From the NCBI GenBank assembly GCA_900095095.1, contig FMBT01000374.1, positions 62,001 to 126,000 on the forward strand: a stretch of 64,000 nucleotides of DNA. The letters run 5' to 3'. Under the pieces are notes generated by a model, which saw only the letters and a program-made list of their open reading frames with translations, did not search any database and was not told the origin of the DNA. The position numbers were made by a program, and so were the translations under genes. This stretch comes from Fragilariopsis cylindrus CCMP1102 (taxonomy: Eukaryota > Bacillariophyta > Bacillariophyceae > Bacillariales > Bacillariaceae). Below are positions 40,501-53,005 of the stretch, one piece after another. Each line of letters opens with the position of its first letter. The stretch's first letter is position 1.

Positions 40501-41923
40501 ATGAGAATCTCTAACGCGTTACTTGGTATCATCTTAACATTCACTCCTTGGAATGTTCGTGCATCTAAAAACAGTATGTCGGGTACTGATGCTATTGCTG
40601 CTGCTGCTGCTGCAGCAGCTGTAAGAGAATCAGCACAAAGGGAGTTATTAGGTATGTCCTCTAACAAAAACAACAATAATAATTATGAATATAAACGTAC
40701 TTATATTACTATTATTGAACCAGATAATTTTGTATCAATTGATCCGGATCAGATGGTAAAACAGCTGGTGGACGTAGTTATCCGAGCTACACTAGCGCAG
40801 ACTATACCAACATCTATTGGTACTTCAACTATTCAAAACGGTACGTTTTCATTACAATTTATATGTCATATTATACAGTAAATACTATGTTTGCTTATTT
40901 ATATTATTACGCCGTTCATTCGTTGTCCGTTTTTCGTTATTCGTTTTTACTAAAATCGCCTTCTTTCAATTTTCTTTTATGTTGCATATATTACCGTTTT
41001 CATTCCTATAAATTACAATGAACTACAGGAAGAATTTATGATCCTGCTGATATTGAAATTGTTAACAAACCAAACGGTATCGAGCCTGGTGATTTATTTG
41101 AAGAATTTGGAGAAATAACCCTTGGCGATGTTCGAAGCTTTCCTGCTCAATTAATTGGACAACGATATGCTGGTGATCGTCAACCAAAAACTCCAATCCC
41201 TGTTGGTGATTCAGCATATTTCTTTCATGGTGAATGTGTTGCAACATCTGCATTACCATTTGTAGGAAAATTTCCTGATACTGTTGAGCCTGGTGAAGGT
41301 ATTGAAGATATAAAGGATTTTTCAATTTTAGAAGGAGCATTTGTCATTACAAGTCATACATGCTTACTAAATTTATGTTTAGGTGGTGGTGGATTTGATT
41401 GTATCGCAATTTATGCTGGCACCTCATTTGTATTTGATTTTGGTCAACAATTAAATCTATTTCAAAAAGAGAGAGGTAATTTCAAAGATCTTGTTCGTAC
41501 AACACCAACATTACCACCACCATATCCAGCCACCATTATTGGAGGAACCGGAGAGTACGTTTATAATATATGGCATGCATATATATATATATATTATATA
41601 TGCATAAATATTAGTGTCTATGTGTGTGTAGTATACAACCAGTTCTCAATTGAATTGAATCGAATCAAAACTATCTAAATATTTGTTTTTGTTCCGTTCC
41701 ATATGCATCTTCTTATAATATTCAATATATATATATATATATATATAGCTTTGGAGGTATTGAGGGGACTGTACAAATTGCAACAATTGCTGGTTCAGCT
41801 GGTGCATTCCTTAACGTGCCAGTGACCGCGAGACAAGGTGATCTTGGTGGATTACAAAGATTTGGTTTTATTGTACAATCCATTTCTGTTACATCTAATA
41901 TGCCATTACCAACAGCGCCATAA
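40501..41923 (+). CDS. Secreted barrel-like (dirigent/AOC-like) protein
   Basis: Three exons, 40501-40840, 41029-41554 and 41749-41923, with GTACGT donors at both introns, give 346 residues. A signal peptide (ISNALLGIILTFTPWNVRAS) is followed by a poly-Ala run and a spacer. The core alternates beta strands and glycines: GDLFEEFGEITLGDVRSF, GDSAYFFHGECVATSA, FSILEGAFVITSHTCLL, YPATIIGGTGEFGG made across the second splice, then GTVQIATIAG. The strand order with a final A-x-I-x-GGTG-x-F-x-G-x-x-G block is that of dirigent and allene-oxide-cyclase-type barrels. In plants dirigent proteins steer radical coupling; nothing here shows the substrate. Assignment is by fold pattern only. Probably extracellular or endomembrane. 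Confidence 0.78.
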
Positions 41924-44275
41924 ATATTGATACAATTATCTTGTTTCATGTGAAATGAATGGATCACATGGATCAAAATAAAGTGAAAGAACTATACAAA
42001 TACATGTATCATTTAATAGTACACGTATATAATGTAAACGAAATCAGTAAATATAACGAAACCAGTAATTATACATAATGAGAACTATATAATAAAGGAA
42101 GTAATTTCTATGAATGAAATGGGAGAAAATGAAGAAGAAGAACCGAATAAGGGATAATTGTACGTAAATATTTTTTACCAATTAATAACTAACTACTGTA
42201 ATCATGACTGATACTACTTTTATGTACTTATTCAACGACTGGTATTTGTGGTTCTACTGTACTGCAGAAATACTTTCGTAGTGGTGCTTTCTATGGTCCT
42301 ATTCTACTTTATTCCTATGGTCCTATTCTATTCCTTAGTACACATATATTTTTTGTTGTTTGGTTCATTTATTTTACCCTATTTTGTTCTATGATTTTCG
42401 TTACAACATGGAGATATAAAAATGAGATAATAACACGATTTGAAAAAGAGGAACTGAAATATCCCCAAAAGAACAGTCCCAATCAGTGATAACGATAAGG
42501 TCGATCAACAAACGACAATCCAAGCACCATTCAAAACCACGAAGTCGTAGAGGAACGATATTCCATTAAAGAGGAAGAGAAGAAGAACACGCACAGTGCA
42601 ATAAAACCTGGGAAAGTTTGTAAAAAAGCACCAGCTACCGGTATATCGTTAGAATAATGATGTGCAATATTGAAAATCGGGGTAGTCTTAATATTACGCA
42701 GCGTCACAATCAAAAGTCGTACCAATCAATACTAAGAAACAAAGCCACACTATACCCCATCACCGATTTTATCTCGCGTTTTTTGATTTGTTGTTTCACT
42801 TTCTCATAATCATTGAAACGATGAGAGAAGGGACATCAGCGAAATGTCGCCGTCACCGTCTCCGCAATCAAGGAACTGGGAGCAGGATGAAGAAACAACC
42901 ACCAATTCTCGTCAGCATTGCGTTCTTCTACTTCTAAAATAGGACTACTTTCAGTAGTTACTGGTAAAAAGTAGAACGTTTTGTCGTGATGTGCGAATAC
43001 GGTTCTATTCCTTGCTGCGAAATCATATATGATATGATAAAAATTGCTAAATTGGATTGGATTTTGTCGTTGGATGTGTCTTTTTCGACGACGACGTCGA
43101 AGAGTGCTGTCAGTCGCCTTCCGATCGCCTTGAATACATCATAAGGAAACGCAGAGTACGTGCAGTATTTTATAGTCGATTTATTTCTATTTAAAACATT
43201 TCTATTTTTCGAAAAATATATCATAATTCCAAGTATGGGAGAGGAGCAAGAATAGTCGCATACTGTATTGCTGTTTTGTTGTATCATTTGGAGTATGGTG
43301 TATCCATCAAAAGTAGTGTTGTAGTAGGAAAGTTAGACCGGACATTCTTGAACAGAGCAGCAAGTGCAACAATCACATAAGAAATTCTCGTCATAGCAGT
43401 CTGCTCCAAGTACTTCAAGAACTACTGTAGTGCAGTATTATTACATATTGCAACCGGCATACTTCCAGTGAAAGCATTGCCTTAGATTTAAAGTACCCGA
43501 AAATCATCTAGATTAGCTAATTGTGTAGGGATAATTCCGGATAGACTATCATCCACATTTGTCTCAATGCGAGTTTATGCGCCTAACTGAAACTACTTCT
43601 CAGGCATGCATAGATATGACATCCCTGTCCCCGCTCCAACACAGAATTACTACTCAGCCCCTCCTAGCGCTAGGATGTTACTACATGTGTAGTACTGCTT
43701 CTGGTTGCTAGACTTAAAGCTAAGCACACTCACTTCCTTGCTGCTATCAACCCCCCGTGTTAAACAACGTTGTGTCCTTATATAATATATATATATTACG
43801 ATTACTATGTATGAACTGAATGTTGTTGATTCACGGTCTGGCCAGCGTCAAAATATTACGTTCTTAGCAACAATGATGCAAGCTTTTGAATTGCTTCGTC
43901 ACTACGACACGACGACTTTGCTCTCGTGTTATTATTACGCTAAAATAGCCAAGAGGCAGTCACGTTAAATTTTTTACCGCGCCTAATTGTACAGTACTAC
44001 GACACGAAAAGCACAACAACCAAAAAGATGTGAACTAGTAAATCTTACGTTACTTCGTATTTCTTCACAACGCACATCTTAACTCCTTCTTCGTGTTTCG
44101 TTTTAATATTCTTGCTACACATCGCAAGAAGAAAGCTCGTCACAAGAAAGTACCAATACAGACCTCATTGTACTTGTATCGCACAGCTCGTCATTATAAT
44201 ACAATCATAAGAAGACGAATCTAACAACTCAAATCTTTATTTATAACACAAGAAGACACCACAATAATTGCAATC
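41924..44275. other. Gene-poor stretch with LRR debris
   Basis: 2.3 kb with no full gene. Apart from the LRR remnant at 43320-43566, it holds short ORFs (42531-42725 and 42958-43287, minus) without known motifs, a GACGAC tract (43087-43099) and AT-rich words. The last 250 bp form the presumed promoter of the zinc-finger gene. Confidence 0.4.
43320..43566 (-). pseudogene. LRR remnant
   Basis: Minus strand codes TNVDDSLSGIIPTQLANLDD then FRVL, two stops, GNAFTGSMPVAICNNTALQ and a stop. The SGIIPTQLANL and NAFTGSMP pieces fit the plant-type LRR consensus. Stops in frame make it a decayed gene end. Confidence 0.55.
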
Positions 44276-46126
44276 ATGGGTGGTAGTGGAAAACAACAAC
44301 AAAATGCGAATGTATCATCCTTTCGCGCTTTAACGTCGCTGTTTACTACGACGGGTACTAAACAGACGAAGACGAAAGCAACAAATAATAATACACGTCC
44401 TTCGTCTTATTCGTCTTCATTATCTAATACAAAACACACTTCTACTTCTTTCAACGAACGAAAGCCGCAAGCCAATAAAGCCGTCATCGCTACTACTACT
44501 GTTGCTGTTGCTGCTCGTCCTCCGCCGCCACCACCACCACAAGAACAAAACAGCCGCCGCCTGTACTACCGTCACGAAAATCAAGTCGTACTGGTATCAA
44601 GAGAAATTATAAACATATATTATTATCACAGGAACATGATAGTAATGATAATAATTCTCGTCGTGGAGGAAAAAATAATGCGGCGACGGAAGATGATGAT
44701 GATGAAAAAGAAGAAGATAATAATAGCAGTACCAATCATAATAAGCGGGATTATGGCAGCAGCAGCAACAGTAACAACAACACAGGGCAAAGAAGCAGAA
44801 GACGACACAAGAAGAAAAAAAATTAATTCTATCCCAAGGATTAAAGAATGTATGTATTGTGGTGAAAATTTTCATGCGAAAGGTATATCAAGACATTTAT
44901 TAAAATGTGCAGAATTACAAAGGAAGAAGAAGAACAACAACAACAACGACGACGACGACGTAAAGTCATCATCCGCATCCACAGGATATAAAGAATGTCT
45001 TTATTGTGGTGAAACGTTTCATGTAAAAGGTATTACAAATCATCAAGTAAAATGTGCAGAATTGGATCATAGTCAAAGGAACAACAACAGCAACAAGGAT
45101 AACGACATCATCGATGACGAAGAAGAATCATCATCATCAGAAGAAGAAGAAGAAGAAGGAAGGAGGAGGAGGAGGACGTCGAAGTAGGAGTCGATGATAG
45201 TAGTGAATCGTCGTCAGAAGAAGAGGAGGAGGAGGAGGACCACGATAACGATAACGATAACAATAACGGAGAACTCTCCAGTAGATCAAAAACGTTGTTC
45301 TTTTTGCGGCAACGGATTCATATTAAAGGCTTTTCAAATCATATAAGATTTTGCAAAGGAACACTAGTAGAAGAAGAAGAAGAAGAAGCCAGTGATGATA
45401 CTAATGATGCGACAATAACGATGATAATGGCGAAGAAATGAGCAGTGAGTCGTCATCAACGAATGATGATGAAGATGGTGAAGATCAAGAAGATAATGAT
45501 AATAATGCCGTCGCCTTAAAATACAGACAACAACGTACGAACGCACAAGGGAAAATACAATGTATTCATGGATGCGGAAATTGGTTCCACTACAGAGGAT
45601 TATCAGCGCATCAATCATCGTGTAGAAAAAAATCATACAATAACAATAGCAATAACGATAATGAGGAAGTTGAAGATGAAGATGAAGACGAATGGAAATA
45701 GAAGAGATTGATGACAATGATAGTACGAATACTACGAATGATAAGGATGATGGTGATGACAACGATGACGAAATGAGTAGTACATGTAGTAGTCAAAGGA
45801 AGCAATGTCTGTATTGTACAAAAGTATTTCACAGTATAAGATCACATGCAGCTCATGAAGGATGGTGTAGAAAACAAACTAATAAGAAGATCAACAACAA
45901 CAACAACAACGACATCGACTACGACGACTCCCTTAACGGTGATGTAGGGTACCAAAGGAAGGAATGGAAACAAATGAAACAATGTCCTTATTGTCCAAGA
46001 GAATTCCCTAATATAAGAGCATTTGCAGCTCATTCAGGATGGTGTAAAAACAAAATCACGATGAAAATATCCCTAGAAACATCGGTGGTAACGGTGACGA
46101 TGATAATGCGCCCTTTTTTGCTATGA
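44276..46126 (+). pseudogene. C2HC zinc-finger region, frame-disrupted (probable 5' part of the next gene)
   Basis: Six fingers of C-x2-C-x11/12-H-x3-C type lie in one direction: ECMYCGENFHAKGISRHLLKC (split here for reading; 44845-44907), CLYCGETFHVKGITNHQVKC (about 44998-45057), a broken one (RCSFCGN then HIKGFSNHIRFC, 45296-45355), CIHGCGNWFHYRGLSAHQ (45561), QCLYCTKVFHSIRSHAAH (45805) and QCPYCPREFPNIRAFAAH (45979). They are separated by acidic Asn/Asp/Glu spacers. Fingers 1-2 share one frame, 4 another, 5-6 the first again, and the following gene uses the third; each change occurs in an A-run or acidic repeat. Six single-base indels from assembly error, or real decay, explain this better than introns, since no splice signals are found. 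I infer that the whole belongs with the gene at 46123. Confidence 0.55.
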
Positions 46127-48618
46127 ACAACCAAACAAAGGATGACGATGATGAAGATAAATCCCAAGAAAGCGACTACTGTTCCGCAAGACAGGCAGAC
46201 GACGACGACGACGATGATGATGATGTTGCAGAAATCGCCGATGATGATGTTGACAGGATCGCGAAGTATTATGAAAAAGAGAGTGAAGATGATGACGGCA
46301 ACGAAAGAAACAAGATGACACCGATGACAGACGATGATGGCGACACTAGTCCGAATAATTTGGTGAAAACCGACCTTGAAAAGAAGAAAAGCGATGGATA
46401 TTGTTCTTCACCGGATTCGAAGTCAATATTGAAGCATGCAACAGGACAACGTATGTCGTCACCACTACCACCACCACCACCGCGAAGTAAAACTGACAGT
46501 AAAGAAAACGACGGTGATGTAAGTAGTAAAAAAATGTCTCCACTTAGTAACGATAACCCCAACGTTGAGAGCGAAAATAACACTGTCCGACCAATTATGA
46601 AGAATGGCGTTGTATACTACAAAAATTTAGTCAATACCAATGACGTCGTACTCGGTCGCGGTGGTGCCGCACATAATAGTCCCGGAAATGTTTGGTTTCG
46701 AAGGCTAGTCAAATACAATCAAACCCTATACGCTACGGTCCCAAAGCATACCAAACTACTAGTCGCTAGGTCGATCATTCATGCCGTCCTGGATCGAAAA
46801 CCCGTCGGAGGAAGATTCATGACAAACGGAAAAGAAAAAGGTCACGAGGATGGTAACCAAGACACCGAAGATCATGGTGCGTCTGAAATAACGACACACG
46901 ATTCAGATCTGTCTGGACCATGGAAAATCATAACATACGATCAAGCTGTTGCAAAGGCATCTCAGGCCCTACGGGACCGTAAAGGATTTTGTCCACCACC
47001 CTCGACGGAAGCCTGGGAAATCGCTGAGAAGGCATCATCTCTTGTCAAGTCTGACCAGGATATTAATCACATTAGACATAATCTATCCAATCTGACAACC
47101 CTTCTTGTGAAGACAGCAGGACTTACGTTGTTTGCTGACTGCAAATGGGAGCAATCAATGGATGGTGTCGTTACAAGTTCCAGTCCCATCACTTTGAATT
47201 CTGATGGCCTTCCAGCAATGGGTTCAAGTGATAATGGCTTACCAACGATGGATTCTTGGTGGCCGAGTGGGTCGTTACCATCAGGAGAAAAACAGTGGAC
47301 AGCACCACAGAATACCCAGGCAGCAGCAAAGCCTCAGCTGTCGCCAACAGAATCCCAGGTAATAGAAACATCCAAGCCATTGCCATCATCGTTCTTGTCG
47401 TCCGTATCTGCGAATGAAAGTAGTTCACAACCTCTTGATCAGTCCAAAAAAGATCGAGAACGTGGCCTACAGAATAGCAACCAGCATGCGAGTGCAAACG
47501 ATGGGCATAGCCTGAAAGATATGAAACGTGAACGAGAACGTGAACTCCAAGATGGTAAACATCGAACGAAATCAAACAATGTTTCTTCACGGAATTTACG
47601 AAAGGACAAAAAGTATGCCATAGTCGAACGGAAGTCGAAGAGGAAATCCCGTTGTGGAACATGTAAAGCCTGTACAAGGAATGATTGTGGTAAATGCAAA
47701 TTCTGTCTCGACAAGCCCAAGTTTGGAGGTCCCGGCAAGAGCAGACAGGTGTGTGTGAAGAGGGCCTGTCCAAATCCTCGATTTTTGGAGATTACCGTGA
47801 AAACACCAGCAACAAATAAAACACCAGCGAAAGAAATGGCACTAGTAAACGTACCAGCTAAAACAAAAGATACCGTTAAAAAGTCTGGGAAAGAAAAAGC
47901 ACAAGCGAAGGAAATAGCACCAGCAATACCAAAAGCATCAGCAACATCGCCACCGCCACCTCCACCACCACCACCACGACCACCACGACCACCGCTAATA
48001 TTACCAAACGGTGCTCACTATTATCATCAGATATTATACGGTCCCCAGAAGAAATCTCAGAGTGAGAAGAATAGAAACAGCCATGCGATGCAACAACAGC
48101 ATCATGAGAAGGTAACACCTTCTCCTGCCCAAAGAATCAATGGGGCAGCACAACAGAAAGTTAAGCTTCAGTACACGAATGGAAATTCTTTTCCCCATAA
48201 ATTGTACAATCTTATCGAACATGCATCCTGGAACGGTCATGGGGACATCATTTCTTGGTCCGAACAGGGTTGCGCGTTCATCATTCATGATCACGCTCGA
48301 TTGGCATCGGAGCTTCTTGGTTTGCATTTTACTTGTCACAGCGAAAATCATGCTCCGTTTATCCGACGAATCATCGATTGGAATTTTTTGAAAATCAGTC
48401 CTTGTTCGATCAAATCTCACTCACCCGGTGGGTTGTCTTTCATGCACCCTTTCTTTCAACGAGGGAGAACAGATAATCTCAATAAAGTCACCCGAAGGAA
48501 AGGCGAACGAACGAAAGAAGAACGCATGGAAGATAATGAAGATAATAATAGACAACCGACTTTCAACGAAGAAGATGGATATGACAGTGAAAGCAGCGGA
48601 GAATCATTGGTATTTTAA
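46123..48618 (+). CDS. DUF6824 / CXXC zinc finger / HSF-type DNA-binding protein
   Basis: 831 codons from the first in-frame ATG, but coding character continues upstream in frame (NIPRNIGGNGDDDNAPFFA), so the true start is probably in the finger region before it. Residues about 159-290 are DUF6824: VVYYKNLVNTNDVVLGRGG, GNVWFRRLVKYNQ, and the closing AVAKASQALRDRKGF. Residues about 505-555 form a CXXC finger: RCGTCKACTRNDCGKCKFC, then KFGGPGKSRQ and KRACPNP; in animals this module binds unmethylated CpG. Residues about 690-785 resemble an HSF DNA-binding domain: FPHKLYNLIEHASWNGHGDI, ISWSEQGCAFIIHD, FIRRIIDWNFLKI, with an unusual recognition helix (SENHAPFIRR). Pro-rich and Lys/Ala linkers join these. 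Probably a nuclear regulator reading CpG or a specific site. The domain mix is unfamiliar to me. Confidence 0.88.
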   Translation: MNNQTKDDDDEDKSQESDYCSARQADDDDDDDDDVAEIADDDVDRIAKYYEKESEDDDGNERNKMTPMTDDDGDTSPNNLVKTDLEKKKSDGYCSSPDSKSILKHATGQRMSSPLPPPPPRSKTDSKENDGDVSSKKMSPLSNDNPNVESENNTVRPIMKNGVVYYKNLVNTNDVVLGRGGAAHNSPGNVWFRRLVKYNQTLYATVPKHTKLLVARSIIHAVLDRKPVGGRFMTNGKEKGHEDGNQDTEDHGASEITTHDSDLSGPWKIITYDQAVAKASQALRDRKGFCPPPSTEAWEIAEKASSLVKSDQDINHIRHNLSNLTTLLVKTAGLTLFADCKWEQSMDGVVTSSSPITLNSDGLPAMGSSDNGLPTMDSWWPSGSLPSGEKQWTAPQNTQAAAKPQLSPTESQVIETSKPLPSSFLSSVSANESSSQPLDQSKKDRERGLQNSNQHASANDGHSLKDMKRERERELQDGKHRTKSNNVSSRNLRKDKKYAIVERKSKRKSRCGTCKACTRNDCGKCKFCLDKPKFGGPGKSRQVCVKRACPNPRFLEITVKTPATNKTPAKEMALVNVPAKTKDTVKKSGKEKAQAKEIAPAIPKASATSPPPPPPPPPRPPRPPLILPNGAHYYHQILYGPQKKSQSEKNRNSHAMQQQHHEKVTPSPAQRINGAAQQKVKLQYTNGNSFPHKLYNLIEHASWNGHGDIISWSEQGCAFIIHDHARLASELLGLHFTCHSENHAPFIRRIIDWNFLKISPCSIKSHSPGGLSFMHPFFQRGRTDNLNKVTRRKGERTKEERMEDNEDNNRQPTFNEEDGYDSESSGESLVF

Positions 48619-50509
48619 AAAAATTAGGCAAATAGAAACAACAAATTTCGAAGATTAGATTTTAAACTATAGATATGCTTCATATTTATGCTTCGATGAA
48701 GTGAATAACGAAAGTATAGTAAGAACAGATAGGGAAAGAGTATAAAATGGAATAAATCACAACAACAATAATACTGATGGTATTTGGTTTTGTATATACC
48801 GGTCATGTCGTGTGTTATTATTTTGATCCGCACATGATCGAAAGGGAATGAAAAGGAGTATGGTGTATTTTTTGTTCAGATAGATTTCTACGGTAGTGAA
48901 TTGGGCCTTACATAATATATATATATATACATATATATATAAACAAACAAACACATGCATGCATATACAACCATAAATTAGATTATTGATTATTGTATTA
49001 CACGAAAAACTACTTCTACAGTACCAAAAAACAAACGCAATGCATAATATGTATTCGAATAAAGATAGATCATTCTTTTTTTATTTCAATTATCAAACCG
49101 TTTCTTATCTTCTAGTACAATGGGACTAAAAAACTGACGCATCTTGCTGTTACTGCTGCTGCTATTTGGCTGCTTGCTCTCCTTCTCTTCAATATAGATG
49201 ATCATGGCGGTTCAGTCACAGTTCTCTTCATCGTGTACTCATCTTTCTCTTTTCTCGTACACGACAGAGTAAGCCACGATCCATATCAAATAATGCATGT
49301 CATCAATGTATGGGTCACACTGCAAAAGTAAGTCATACAGTAGTACTGTTCTATTTTTGAATTGTCAAATCTTGACGTTGATATACCTGCCAGATCTCGA
49401 CACCAAACATTTTTCTTCTTTTGCTTCCTTCTCGAATAGTAGAACCATGATAGTATGGACCCACTCTATTTGATTTTTTTCTATTCTATTGATTTTTCTA
49501 CAACATTCTTGAATTCTGATCCTGTCGATTCCTTTGGAGAAGCTTTTGGGAATACACGTGGGTGGTGGTATGGAATGAAGCTTGCGGAACATACAATTTT
49601 GTACAAATAAATGGTCAGAAGAATGTACTGTAGATGCAGTGACATTTATTGTACGAATTTGTAGCAGTAAATAAGGTCCTCATATTTGAAATTCATGTAA
49701 TTGTGTTGGAGATGATTGGTATATTGTGGTCGAAAATGTTGACATTGTTCTTGAATTTGATATGATCGACTGCAATGTACCGGTATGTATGATGGAATTT
49801 ATTGGTGGTGCTCCAATAAACGGAGGTAGTTATGTTCGTATTTTATTTTTCCATAGCCCCGGAATAATTTTTTTGGTGGAACCTCAAAATGGATCAGACT
49901 ATCATTAATTAGTGATAATTAATAGCAACTCTACTGCGGTGGCTGTTTTGTTCTTTTTGGTATGATATGATATGCTACTGCGGATGAATGTGTGTGTTTG
50001 CTACTTCGAGTGAAAAAAGAAAATCTATTAACTTGATGTGTGTTTGTTTTACAATATAATTATCACACAAAGTGTGAGACACAAAGTGTGAGTAAGTGCG
50101 TTCCACCAAAAAAATGGGAACATATTTTTTTTATCGCCTCAAATTAAGGGGGTTACGGTATTCCAGATTCCTATATTTTTCATAACTACAGCAATATTCT
50201 TTAAATGCACAGGGCCATACCCAGCAAGATAATGTAATGTACAACGCCGAGGCTACGCTGCAATAATTACTATTATGCATGACTGAGACTCAGCAGTCAC
50301 TCGAATGACAAAATGAATTTTTGAATCGATACTGTACGGTAATCATGCTATGCTAGTTTAATACACAAGAAGAAAACGACAACATAAAAATATCTCATTC
50401 TCTTAACGGACGTTAGCAATAATGACTGCAGGAGTAACTTACTGAAGCTGACAGATAGAACAATTATCACAAGATAACAAGCAAGAGGGGTACGACGCTG
50501 ATAATAATC
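48619..50509. other. Intergenic, 1.9 kb
   Basis: AT-rich; contains AT tracts near 48918-48942 and small ORFs without motifs (49365-49592 minus, 49726-49908 plus). No gene, RNA or repeat was identified with confidence. Confidence 0.4.
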
Positions 50510-53005
50510 ATGAATACTCTCGACGATTATCTCGACGACGATGAACAACAACAACGAGAATTCAATGACAGGGGGGATTATAATCCTAATGACAATAATG
50601 AGTATTATGACAACAACAATGACAATGAAACTGGCAATGAAAATGAAAATGAACAACCAGATGAACGATTTGTTGTTCATATGAATTTGCGTCGACTATT
50701 ATATCGTATGGAACGTTATGAAAATTTTATTACTATTATTGATAATGACGACAACGACGACGACGACAATCAGAATCATCAATCGTGGCATTCATTATTA
50801 TTACGTGCACAACTATGCCAAGACTTATGGGAACAGGTAGCAGCATATAATGTTGGTGATACTCACGATGATGAACGAAAGATTGACTATCGTAAATTAT
50901 CTACTAGAGTAGACAGAGCATGCCGTCGTGCACGTGATATTGCTGATCAAGTAAAGCAAAATGAAAAACAAGAAGGAAAAGTTGATCTAGTAGAAAGTTT
51001 GTTCTTTCCAGGAAGTAATAATGATGATGATGGAAGTATCGATGATGAGGACGATAATAATAACAGTTTACCTATGACTTTAGAAGAAGAAGTGGAGGAG
51101 GAAGAAGTGCAGGAGGAAGGTGAAGATTCTTCTTCGGATGACAACAACAACAATAATACTGCATCATCAAATACTATTAATGCTAATACACGTTCACGTA
51201 GTAAAAATAAGGAATTGCAAGAATTACAAGAATCACAACGTGAACAAATGGAGGAGGCAATCTCAATCATGGCATGTCAAATGAAGGAGGCCACGAAAGG
51301 GATACAAACAACTATTAAGAAACAAACTGAATCGACATTAGATCAATTAGAAGATGTGGCAGAACAAAATATGATCGATGTCTCCGAAGTTGCTCAAAAT
51401 GTCAAACAACATCATGTCACACAATCGAAATCCAATTGGGGTTCGTGGACAACAATTATATTATTAGTGGGTATATTTGTCTTTACATTCCTCACAATAT
51501 TCACTATACCAAAATCATCGAAATCCTTGTATAGAACAGATGGTAGATCAAGTATACCAATTCGAATATTAAAAAAAGCAACAAACGGTATTCAATCAAT
51601 ATTATCATCATCATCATCTATTATGTCAAAATTTCGTGACGATAATGAGGATGATGATGAGGATAACGATTCGTCTTCGTCGTCGACCACTACTACTAAA
51701 ACCTGTAAGAGTGATGATTATATATGTCTTGTTGCTGCTCAAAAGGAAAAAGAAGACAACAATAAGGATGATTGGAAACATGAAGAACAACAACAAAAAG
51801 AAAAAGAACGATTAGATGAAATTGTTCAGAATATGAAGACGAAGAAGAAGAAAAAACAGAAACGTGATGGTGACGATGAAGGATTGCAGGACAAAGAAGA
51901 AGAAGAAGACAGGGTGTCAGACAATCCTTGGGGTATTGATCCTGAAGAGGAAATTGAAGAGGAAGAAGAAAAGGTGCAAGTAGTAGACAATCCCTGGGGG
52001 ATAGAACCTGAAGAAGAAGAAGATGAAGTAGAAATACTTGAACAGCACTACGAGTCACAACAAAAGGAGGAGAAGGAAAAGGATCATCGTCGTCGTCAAC
52101 AGCAGGAGAAGGAAGACCAGCAGCAGAAACAACAAGTGGTTGTTCCACCACCTTCGCCGGAAGACATTAACGTTAATGATATCTTTGCTTCCTTACAACG
52201 GCAACAACAGGCGGTGGCGGCGGCGAATGATATAGCAGCATCCGCGGATGAGGAGGAGGAAAATACGAAATCGACTACTACCACGACCACTACTGACGAT
52301 GATAAAATAGTGCCGACCATGGTTAAGAGAGAGGGTGTGGCTAGTAAACAAATTTCTCCACGTGATTTTCGTGTGGCTGCCGCATCCAATGACTATGCTA
52401 CATTACAAGAATATTTAAAGCTTGTTCCGGAACATATTAATCGACAAGATAAATTTGGTTGGACTGCCTTACATTTAGCCACCCGATCCGGTCATGAAAA
52501 CATTGTCCGTCTATTACTACAAAGTAAATACCATGGTGATGTTACTATTCTATCGAATAGTGAAGAAACAGCATTCGATGTTGCAAATGATAAATTTGGT
52601 ATCGATCATCCAATTACACAAATATTTATTGAATTAGGTTTATACCCTGACAACTATTACGAAGAAGATTATGACGATGACGACGATGATGAATTAAACG
52701 ATGTTAAAGAATTTGTCAATGAGGAAATAGAAGCGCAAAAAGCTGAGAATGAACGTATTGCCAAACAAAAACGACTGGAGGAAGAAGAAGCTAGAATTTC
52801 CAAAGAACAGAAAATTGCTAGAATAGCAGAAACAGAAAAACAAATCAAAGATGAAAAACTACGTAAACTTTTCGAACAACCAATTATTGAAGACGACGAC
52901 GATGATCATTATAACAACGAAGACGATGGCGGTAGCATTCATGAGGATCTAATAAAACTAAAAAGAAGTCGTCTGGATGCAGTTCTCGGTCGAGATGAGT
53001 TATAA
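50510..53005 (+). CDS. Ankyrin-repeat membrane protein with acidic repeats
   Basis: Single exon, 831 residues. Residues about 55-165 are ordered and helical (VVHMNLRRLLYRMERYENF, HSLLLRAQLCQDLWEQVAA). Coiled coil follows at about 240-305 (MEEAISIMACQMKEATKGI). A transmembrane helix lies at about 311-335 (TTIILLVGIFVFTFLTIFTI). The central region is Glu/Lys/Gln-rich with a duplicated phrase (SDNPWGIDPEEE and VDNPWGIEPEEE). Residues about 616-715 form ankyrin-type helices: PRDFRVAAASNDYATLQEYL, INRQDKFGWTALHLATRSGH, ENIVRLLLQ and SEETAFDVAND. A C-terminal coiled coil ends the protein. The soluble ankyrin part probably faces the cytosol and binds partners; function unknown. Asn/Asp homopolymers as in its neighbours. 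Confidence 0.82.
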   Translation: MNTLDDYLDDDEQQQREFNDRGDYNPNDNNEYYDNNNDNETGNENENEQPDERFVVHMNLRRLLYRMERYENFITIIDNDDNDDDDNQNHQSWHSLLLRAQLCQDLWEQVAAYNVGDTHDDERKIDYRKLSTRVDRACRRARDIADQVKQNEKQEGKVDLVESLFFPGSNNDDDGSIDDEDDNNNSLPMTLEEEVEEEEVQEEGEDSSSDDNNNNNTASSNTINANTRSRSKNKELQELQESQREQMEEAISIMACQMKEATKGIQTTIKKQTESTLDQLEDVAEQNMIDVSEVAQNVKQHHVTQSKSNWGSWTTIILLVGIFVFTFLTIFTIPKSSKSLYRTDGRSSIPIRILKKATNGIQSILSSSSSIMSKFRDDNEDDDEDNDSSSSSTTTTKTCKSDDYICLVAAQKEKEDNNKDDWKHEEQQQKEKERLDEIVQNMKTKKKKKQKRDGDDEGLQDKEEEEDRVSDNPWGIDPEEEIEEEEEKVQVVDNPWGIEPEEEEDEVEILEQHYESQQKEEKEKDHRRRQQQEKEDQQQKQQVVVPPPSPEDINVNDIFASLQRQQQAVAAANDIAASADEEEENTKSTTTTTTTDDDKIVPTMVKREGVASKQISPRDFRVAAASNDYATLQEYLKLVPEHINRQDKFGWTALHLATRSGHENIVRLLLQSKYHGDVTILSNSEETAFDVANDKFGIDHPITQIFIELGLYPDNYYEEDYDDDDDDELNDVKEFVNEEIEAQKAENERIAKQKRLEEEEARISKEQKIARIAETEKQIKDEKLRKLFEQPIIEDDDDDHYNNEDDGGSIHEDLIKLKRSRLDAVLGRDEL

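What the first reader, a model, noticed from the sequence alone, without database searches (positions are those of the whole stretch)
44276..48618. C2HC fingers + DUF6824 + CXXC + HSF-type domain in one locus
Six C2HC fingers, a DUF6824 module, a CpG-type CXXC finger and an HSF-like DNA-binding domain lie in one direction without an intergenic gap; the frame of the 46123 ORF reads upstream into the last finger. I know DUF6824 and HSF as diatom expansions and CXXC as an animal/plant CpG reader, but not this combination. If it is one protein it could link CpG status to a stress-type DNA-binding domain.
Basis: partly seen in the sequence, partly recalled or inferred. Interest (0 to 1): 0.85.

Follow-up and report, generated by a model that had tools for sequence, protein, structure and literature searches.

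The report
Diatom CpG-reader fused to HSF-like domain
A diatom gene encodes one protein that joins a domain expected to bind unmethylated CpG DNA, a heat-shock-factor-like DNA-binding domain and a diatom domain of unknown function; a row of zinc fingers just upstream is probably its front part, but the available sequence is too damaged there to be sure.

Summary
The window lies in an unnamed 67.9 Mb diatom-like genome. ORF 46048-48618 (first ATG 46123) carries DUF6824, type-1 CXXC and an HSF-type domain, all above Pfam cut-offs. Two other public proteins have the same trio in the same order, so this part is real and conserved. The HSF-type domain is divergent: the base-contact Arg is kept, most of the recognition helix is changed, and only 39 residues follow, too few for the trimerisation coiled coil. 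Upstream, five C2HC fingers are intact in single frames and a sixth is cut by a frame break. The finger stretch changes frame six times in a codon model. Contig C300, free of substitutions over 42390-49912, differs by eight indels, seven in this stretch, so the breaks look like consensus errors. Coding signal continues through 46048-46122, upstream of the ATG, favouring one ~1,430-residue protein. But the relative P0002 starts with Met at almost that point and has no fingers. I rate the finger fusion at 0.55, the three-domain protein at 0.97. No paper on the combination turned up in my searches (listings only).

The parts
44276..44278 (+). probable start codon of the finger part (A at -3, G at +4)
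   Evidence: sequence; coding path begins at 44245 in this frame
44849..44908 (+). C2HC finger 1
   Evidence: pattern match, frame 2; zf-C2HC_2 in this ORF
44996..45055 (+). C2HC finger 2
   Evidence: pattern match, frame 2; zf-C2HC_2 best stretch
45296..45354 (+). finger 3, readable only across a frame break inside the finger
   Evidence: three-frame translation; not matched in a single frame
45561..45623 (+). C2HC finger 4 (CX3C form)
   Evidence: pattern match, frame 0
45806..45868 (+). C2HC finger 5
   Evidence: pattern match, frame 2; three of three substitutions to contig C521 in and just behind it (45811, 45829, 45871) are synonymous
45983..46045 (+). C2HC finger 6
   Evidence: pattern match, frame 2
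46046..46122 (+). junction: frame break, then 75 bases (46048-46122) open in the ORF frame with coding-like codon use upstream of the first ATG
   Evidence: 12.3 bits
46048..48618 (+). 856-codon open frame with three domains; first in-frame ATG at 46123
46642..46977 (+). DUF6824 domain
   Evidence: Pfam PF20710, E 5.3e-17
47632..47769 (+). type-1 CXXC zinc finger (eight Cys, KFGG, SRQ)
   Evidence: Pfam PF02008, E 2.2e-13; PDB sequence matches DNMT1, KDM2B, CpG-binding protein
48190..48498 (+). divergent HSF-type DNA-binding domain
   Evidence: Pfam PF00447, E 2.3e-14; Foldseek best hits HSF4, HSF2, then Skn7
48580..48615 (+). conserved C-terminal motif YDSESSGESLVF
   Evidence: alignment A1; a variant in P0008

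Best explanation
The locus encodes a diatom nuclear DNA-binding regulator. Shown: one polypeptide holds DUF6824, a type-1 CXXC finger and a divergent HSF-type winged helix, in that order, with a conserved linker (LIxPxGAxYYHxxLYG) and C-terminal tail. Inferred from the families: the CXXC finger docks the protein on unmethylated CpG, mainly through its RQ pair, and the HSF-type domain adds a second contact on a neighbouring, changed motif, so that binding needs both the motif and an unmethylated CpG. Because the coiled coil that trimerises ordinary HSFs is missing, the CXXC (and perhaps the fingers) may supply the extra affinity. DUF6824, hugely expanded in this genome, is perhaps a protein-contact or further nucleic-acid module (unknown). 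Inferred, about 55%: the upstream C2HC fingers are the N-terminus of the same protein, and the frame breaks are consensus errors in low-complexity sequence.
For: Three Pfam domains over cut-off in one ORF. Same trio in 2 of the 7 proteins, plus a fragment with CXXC+HSF. All eight CXXC Cys, KFGG and the contact Q are invariant in 4 of 4 aligned sequences; type-1 criteria from PMC3685328 (passages). HSF fold by Foldseek. Taken base by base, 6 of the 10 substitutions to contig C521 listed from 46335 to 48545 are synonymous; the other 4 lie in the tail, 48535-48545. Fusion: C300 shows 0 substitutions and 8 indels over 42390-49912, 7 of them in the finger stretch, and restores the frame at two of the window's breaks. 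A break also cuts finger 3 itself. The 75 bases before ATG 46123 score 12.3 bits as coding; this is reached by 0 of 3250 non-coding 75-mers (those the model was trained on), 61 of 41736 other 75-mers and 0 of 31 other ORF flanks. Homology to P0002 includes FA, the two codons before that ATG.
Against: P0002 (897 aa) begins with Met within about three residues of the window's first ATG and has no fingers. An open stretch before the first ATG is common in itself: 11 of 31 other long ORFs have 25 or more open codons there. The junction break is in C337 and C300 alike, and C521 is out of frame there by a different amount; in C521 the finger frame ends soon after finger 6 and a stop closes the ORF frame upstream of the ATG, though C521 is itself broken by indels through the ORF. 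A search with fingers 1-2 scored 32 candidates and found no relative. No transcript was available. CpG binding and regulation are inferred, not measured. P0008 has DUF6824 and the same HSF type without CXXC, so CXXC is not obligatory.
Confidence: 0.55

Rival explanations
1. Two genes: a finger gene ending just behind finger 6 and an independent DUF6824-CXXC-HSF gene starting at ATG 46123.
For: P0002 starts with Met at nearly the same point and lacks fingers; all three contigs break the frame at the junction, and C521 gives a short plausible tail and a stop behind finger 6.
Against: Only 77 bases lie between finger 6 and the ATG, too few for a usual terminator and promoter (inference); 75 of them score as coding in the ORF frame; a break of the same kind sits inside finger 3, where continuity is required.
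Confidence: 0.33
2. The finger part is a decaying pseudogene (or a decayed N-terminus) in front of a working three-domain gene.
For: Six frame changes in about 1.8 kb by the codon model and none in the 2.57 kb ORF. C300 has an in-frame stop between fingers 4 and 5.
Against: In the window the segments tested in their best frame hold no stop codon (apart from the short stretch across finger 3, whose frame is unclear); Cys and His are intact in the five readable fingers; three of three substitutions at finger 5 are synonymous; indels differ between contigs that otherwise share every base.
Confidence: 0.08
3. An intron of 101-110 bases (from 46085, 46088 or 46094 to 46194) joins finger 6 to the ORF, so that no base is missing at the junction.
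For: Three GT..YAG choices restore the frame.
Against: Their donors are not of the GTRNG form; the would-be intron matches P0002 protein in the ORF frame (local score reached by 4 of 2000 shuffles) and its first part scores as coding.
Confidence: 0.04

Closest known systems
CXXC zinc-finger proteins (CFP1, DNMT1, KDM2A/B, MLL)
   Same: type-1 CXXC: eight Cys, CGxCxxC, KFGG, K/RQ, CxxRxC; the PDB sequence matches of this part are such proteins
   Different: their known partners are methyltransferase, demethylase, PHD, BAH or MBD modules (recalled); here DUF6824 and an HSF-type domain
Heat shock factors (HSF1/2/4, Skn7) and the diatom HSF expansion
   Same: winged-helix fold and sequence over Pfam cut-off; this genome has 128 HSF matches, copies included, as diatoms are HSF-rich (PMC4827209, passages)
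   Different: recognition helix FIRRIIDWNF against FVRQLNMYGF of HSF2, two extra residues before it, only 39 residues after the domain, so no HR-A/B coiled coil behind it
DUF6824 proteins (Pfam PF20710)
   Same: over the cut-off; 150 matches scored in this genome, a lower bound
   Different: CXXC was found at only two loci of this genome, so nearly all other DUF6824 places lack it; two other loci carry HSF then DUF6824 in one open frame, the reverse order
P0001, P0002, P0003, P0008
   Same: same family; P0001 and P0002 have the three domains in the same order
   Different: none shows fingers; P0001 and P0003 lack a start, P0008 lacks CXXC and starts inside DUF6824

Membership tests
type-1 CXXC finger | eight conserved Cys in CxxCxxCx4/5CGxCxxC and CxxRxC | tested here: met
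   definition from PMC3685328 (passages)
type-1 CXXC finger | KFGG linker and KQ/RQ CpG-contact pair | tested here: met
   KFGGPGKSRQ in the window, RQ in P0001 and P0002, KQ in P0003
type-1 CXXC finger | binds unmethylated CpG | not testable with these tools
   no assay
heat shock factor | HSF-type winged-helix domain | tested here: met
   Foldseek E 1.8e-07 to HSF4
heat shock factor | recognition helix as in HSF2, FxRQLNxYGF | tested here: not met
   FIRRIIDWNF; of the ten positions only the two F and the Arg are identical to HSF2
heat shock factor | HR-A/B coiled coil behind the domain (recalled feature) | tested here: not met
   domain ends at residue 817 of 856; 39 residues follow
DUF6824 | PF20710 profile over cut-off | tested here: met
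   62.5 bits against 27
zf-C2HC_2 | PF13913 profile over cut-off | tested here: inconclusive
   met for the piece with fingers 1-2 (28.4 against 27), not for the pieces with fingers 3, 4 and 5-6; a genome search with the family did not list this locus

The most novel reading that the evidence does not exclude
One protein of about 1,430 residues with six C2HC fingers, DUF6824, a CpG-reading CXXC and an HSF-type domain with changed specificity: a sequence-specific regulator whose binding is gated by CpG methylation, in a lineage where CG methylation marks transposons.
Probability: 0.4. Interest if true: 0.7.

Novelty: new variant of a known kind. Interest (0 to 1): 0.52.

Why it matters
Readers of unmethylated CpG are known mainly as recruiters or parts of chromatin enzymes (recalled). 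A natural CXXC fused to a transcription-factor-type DNA-binding domain would couple methylation state directly to motif reading. It would be a candidate reader for CG methylation in diatoms; in Phaeodactylum, loss of the writer DNMT5a depletes CG methylation and raises transposon expression (PMC9998398, abstract and passages). It also offers a testable function for members of two large diatom families, HSF-type and DUF6824.

Tried and rejected
Programmed frameshifting for the broken fingers: not pursued, since the breaks differ between contigs that otherwise share every base. Intron at the junction: tested and disfavoured. Paralogues of the fingers: fingers 5-6 match only the three copies of this locus. 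The family zf-C2HC_2 gave one match elsewhere, at C182, and did not list this locus itself, so that search is insensitive. Related loci: 150 stretches in viral contigs and 46 in genome contigs matched a pattern, none encodes a relative; records of this or a very near genome may be left out there. DUF6824 fold: low-confidence model (mean pLDDT 62.2, 8 sequences), no Foldseek match better than E 4.7, so nothing is concluded.

Papers: DUF6824 in 0; diatom + heat shock factor + CXXC + DNA methylation in 0; CXXC + diatom + zinc finger + CpG in 4; HSF and diatom expansion in 16; a wider search in 45, of which 12 were listed. By title and start of abstract none of those listed is about this combination; I opened only PMC4827209 of them, by passages, and it has no occurrence of CXXC. 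Searches were background searches (8 and 15 papers).

CpG observed/expected of the window is 0.90, no sign of heavy methylation. The C-5 methyltransferase family has 15 matches in the genome, some of them pieces of one gene; I did not sort them into DNMT classes. Of the 7 proteins, P0004-P0007 carry only one of the three domains and were left out of the architecture argument; of the 6, P0009-P0011 carry DUF6824 alone. The codon model left out the 19 loci of this gene. The HSF comparison used 35 of the HSF loci, not all 128 matches. In one search one row is mislabelled (it is L053, not C70).

Full report
What is there. The window is part (C337:62001-126000) of an unnamed 67.9 Mb assembly in 818 contigs. 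The closest named relative protein is from a Bacillariaceae bin (64% identical by BLASTP over 96% of the query; 82% in alignment A1), so this is taken to be a diatom. The open frame 46048-48618 encodes 856 residues, 831 from the first ATG at 46123. Pfam finds DUF6824 at residues 199-310, zf-CXXC at 529-574 and HSF_DNA-bind at 715-817, each about twice its cut-off or more. By sequence the CXXC matches PDB chains of DNMT1, KDM2A/B, CpG-binding protein and MLL, and the HSF part chains of HSF2, HSF1 and HSF4.

Conservation. A search of 5.8 billion proteins returned 7 relatives, of which 2 (P0001, P0002) carry all three domains and 1 fragment (P0003) carries CXXC and HSF. An alignment-based search returned 6: P0001 and P0002 again, P0008 with DUF6824 and the same HSF type but no CXXC, and three with DUF6824 alone. 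Both searches scored only about 8,000 candidates sharing most words, so absence from the lists is weak evidence. All eight CXXC cysteines, KFGG and the contact glutamine are invariant in 4 of 4 sequences, as are a linker LIxPxGAxYYH and the end SLVF. In this genome CXXC was found at this locus (three copies: C337, C300, C521) and at one other, C770, beside what by eye are PHD fingers. HSF gives 128 matches and DUF6824 150, a lower bound, copies included. Comparing the two lists by eye, two other loci have HSF then DUF6824 in one open frame (C343/C513 and C155/C648, seemingly allele pairs). So HSF-DUF6824 pairing recurs, and the CXXC is the rare element.

The HSF-type domain. It keeps the fold (Foldseek top match HSF4, E 1.8e-07; mean pLDDT 59.8 overall, block means 71-88 over the domain). 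It keeps the Arg that in HSFs contacts the G of GAA (role recalled), but the helix reads FIRRIIDWNF where HSF2 has FVRQLNMYGF, with two extra residues before it. P0001-P0003 and P0008 share this form, and the nearest paralogues among the 35 loci compared (C610, C75) are intermediate. Only 39 residues follow, so the usual trimerisation coiled coil is absent behind it. It is HSF-like, not a proven HSF.

The fingers. The pattern CX2-3CX11-12HX3C occurs five times in all six frames of the window, all five between 44849 and 46045 on the + strand. A sixth is visible if the frame is changed inside it. A codon model trained on 38 long ORFs outside the locus gives coding sequence without interruption from 44245 to 48607, with six frame changes, the last at 46047/46048, the same for three frame-change penalties; short non-coding gaps were penalised too, so the model leans against them. 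Reading finger 3 whole would need two further changes.

Why the breaks look technical. Contig C300 equals the window over 42390-49912 without one substitution, yet has eight indels, seven of them in 44663-45695 (two are four bases apart and may be one event). It restores the frame at two of the window's breaks, alters a third, where an in-frame stop appears, and adds new ones. C521 has one substitution but 15 indels between 46123 and 48392, so even the clean ORF is broken there. Real length differences between alleles cannot be excluded. Three of three substitutions between C521 and the window at finger 5 are synonymous, so the fingers look protein-coding; the number is small.

Are fingers and ORF one protein? 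For: the 75 bases before ATG 46123 are open in the ORF frame and score 12.3 bits as coding. None of 3250 non-coding 75-mers (the ones the model was trained on; 807 open), 61 of 41736 other 75-mers of the window on both strands (11375 open) and none of 31 flanks of other long ORFs reach this. Openness alone means little: 11 of those 31 ORFs have 25 or more open codons before their first ATG. Homology to P0002 starts two codons upstream of the ATG (score reached by 1 of 2000 shuffles). Against: P0002 itself starts there with Met and has no fingers; all three contigs are out of frame at the junction, C521 by a different amount and with a stop upstream of the ATG; no finger relative was found, within narrow length limits. 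An intron is possible by frame (3 choices) but disfavoured by the P0002 homology (4 of 2000 shuffles). I put the fusion at 0.55.

How it probably works. CXXC type-1 domains bind unmethylated CpG through the K/RQ pair (PMC3685328, passages). In the diatom Phaeodactylum, CG methylation depends on DNMT5a and lies mainly on transposons (PMC9998398, abstract and passages), and this genome has C-5 methyltransferase matches. The simplest reading is a nuclear regulator that needs both a motif (HSF-type domain) and an unmethylated CpG next to it. The steps from domain to function are inferred. DUF6824 has no known role that I could find, and my model of it was too poor to help.

Verdict. A real, conserved three-domain protein whose combination I found in no paper; the larger fusion is plausible but unproven. 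New variant of a known kind.

Noticed in passing
L026 (G000:C770 around 115532): Second CXXC gene of the genome: by eye two PHD-like fingers, a CXXC split by an intron-like gap, then a long repeat-like region; its low-complexity part may be frame-broken too.
   Followed up: partly
G000:C343:128200-129096, C513:95744-96388, C155:39493-40350, C648:299332-300171: HSF and DUF6824 in one open frame, in the order HSF then DUF6824; two loci, each seemingly as an allele pair.
   Followed up: no
G000:C337:167575-171351 (outside the window, same contig): Two DUF6824 matches in an open frame given as 2923 aa.
   Followed up: no
window 41912-42389 against L009: C300 is diverged from the window here and becomes free of substitutions at 42390, which looks like a haplotype switch in the assembly.
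   Followed up: partly
window 50459-53005 +: Downstream ORF of 848 aa with ankyrin repeats and a Use1-like stretch just under the Pfam cut-off (38.1 against 38.3 bits).
   Followed up: no
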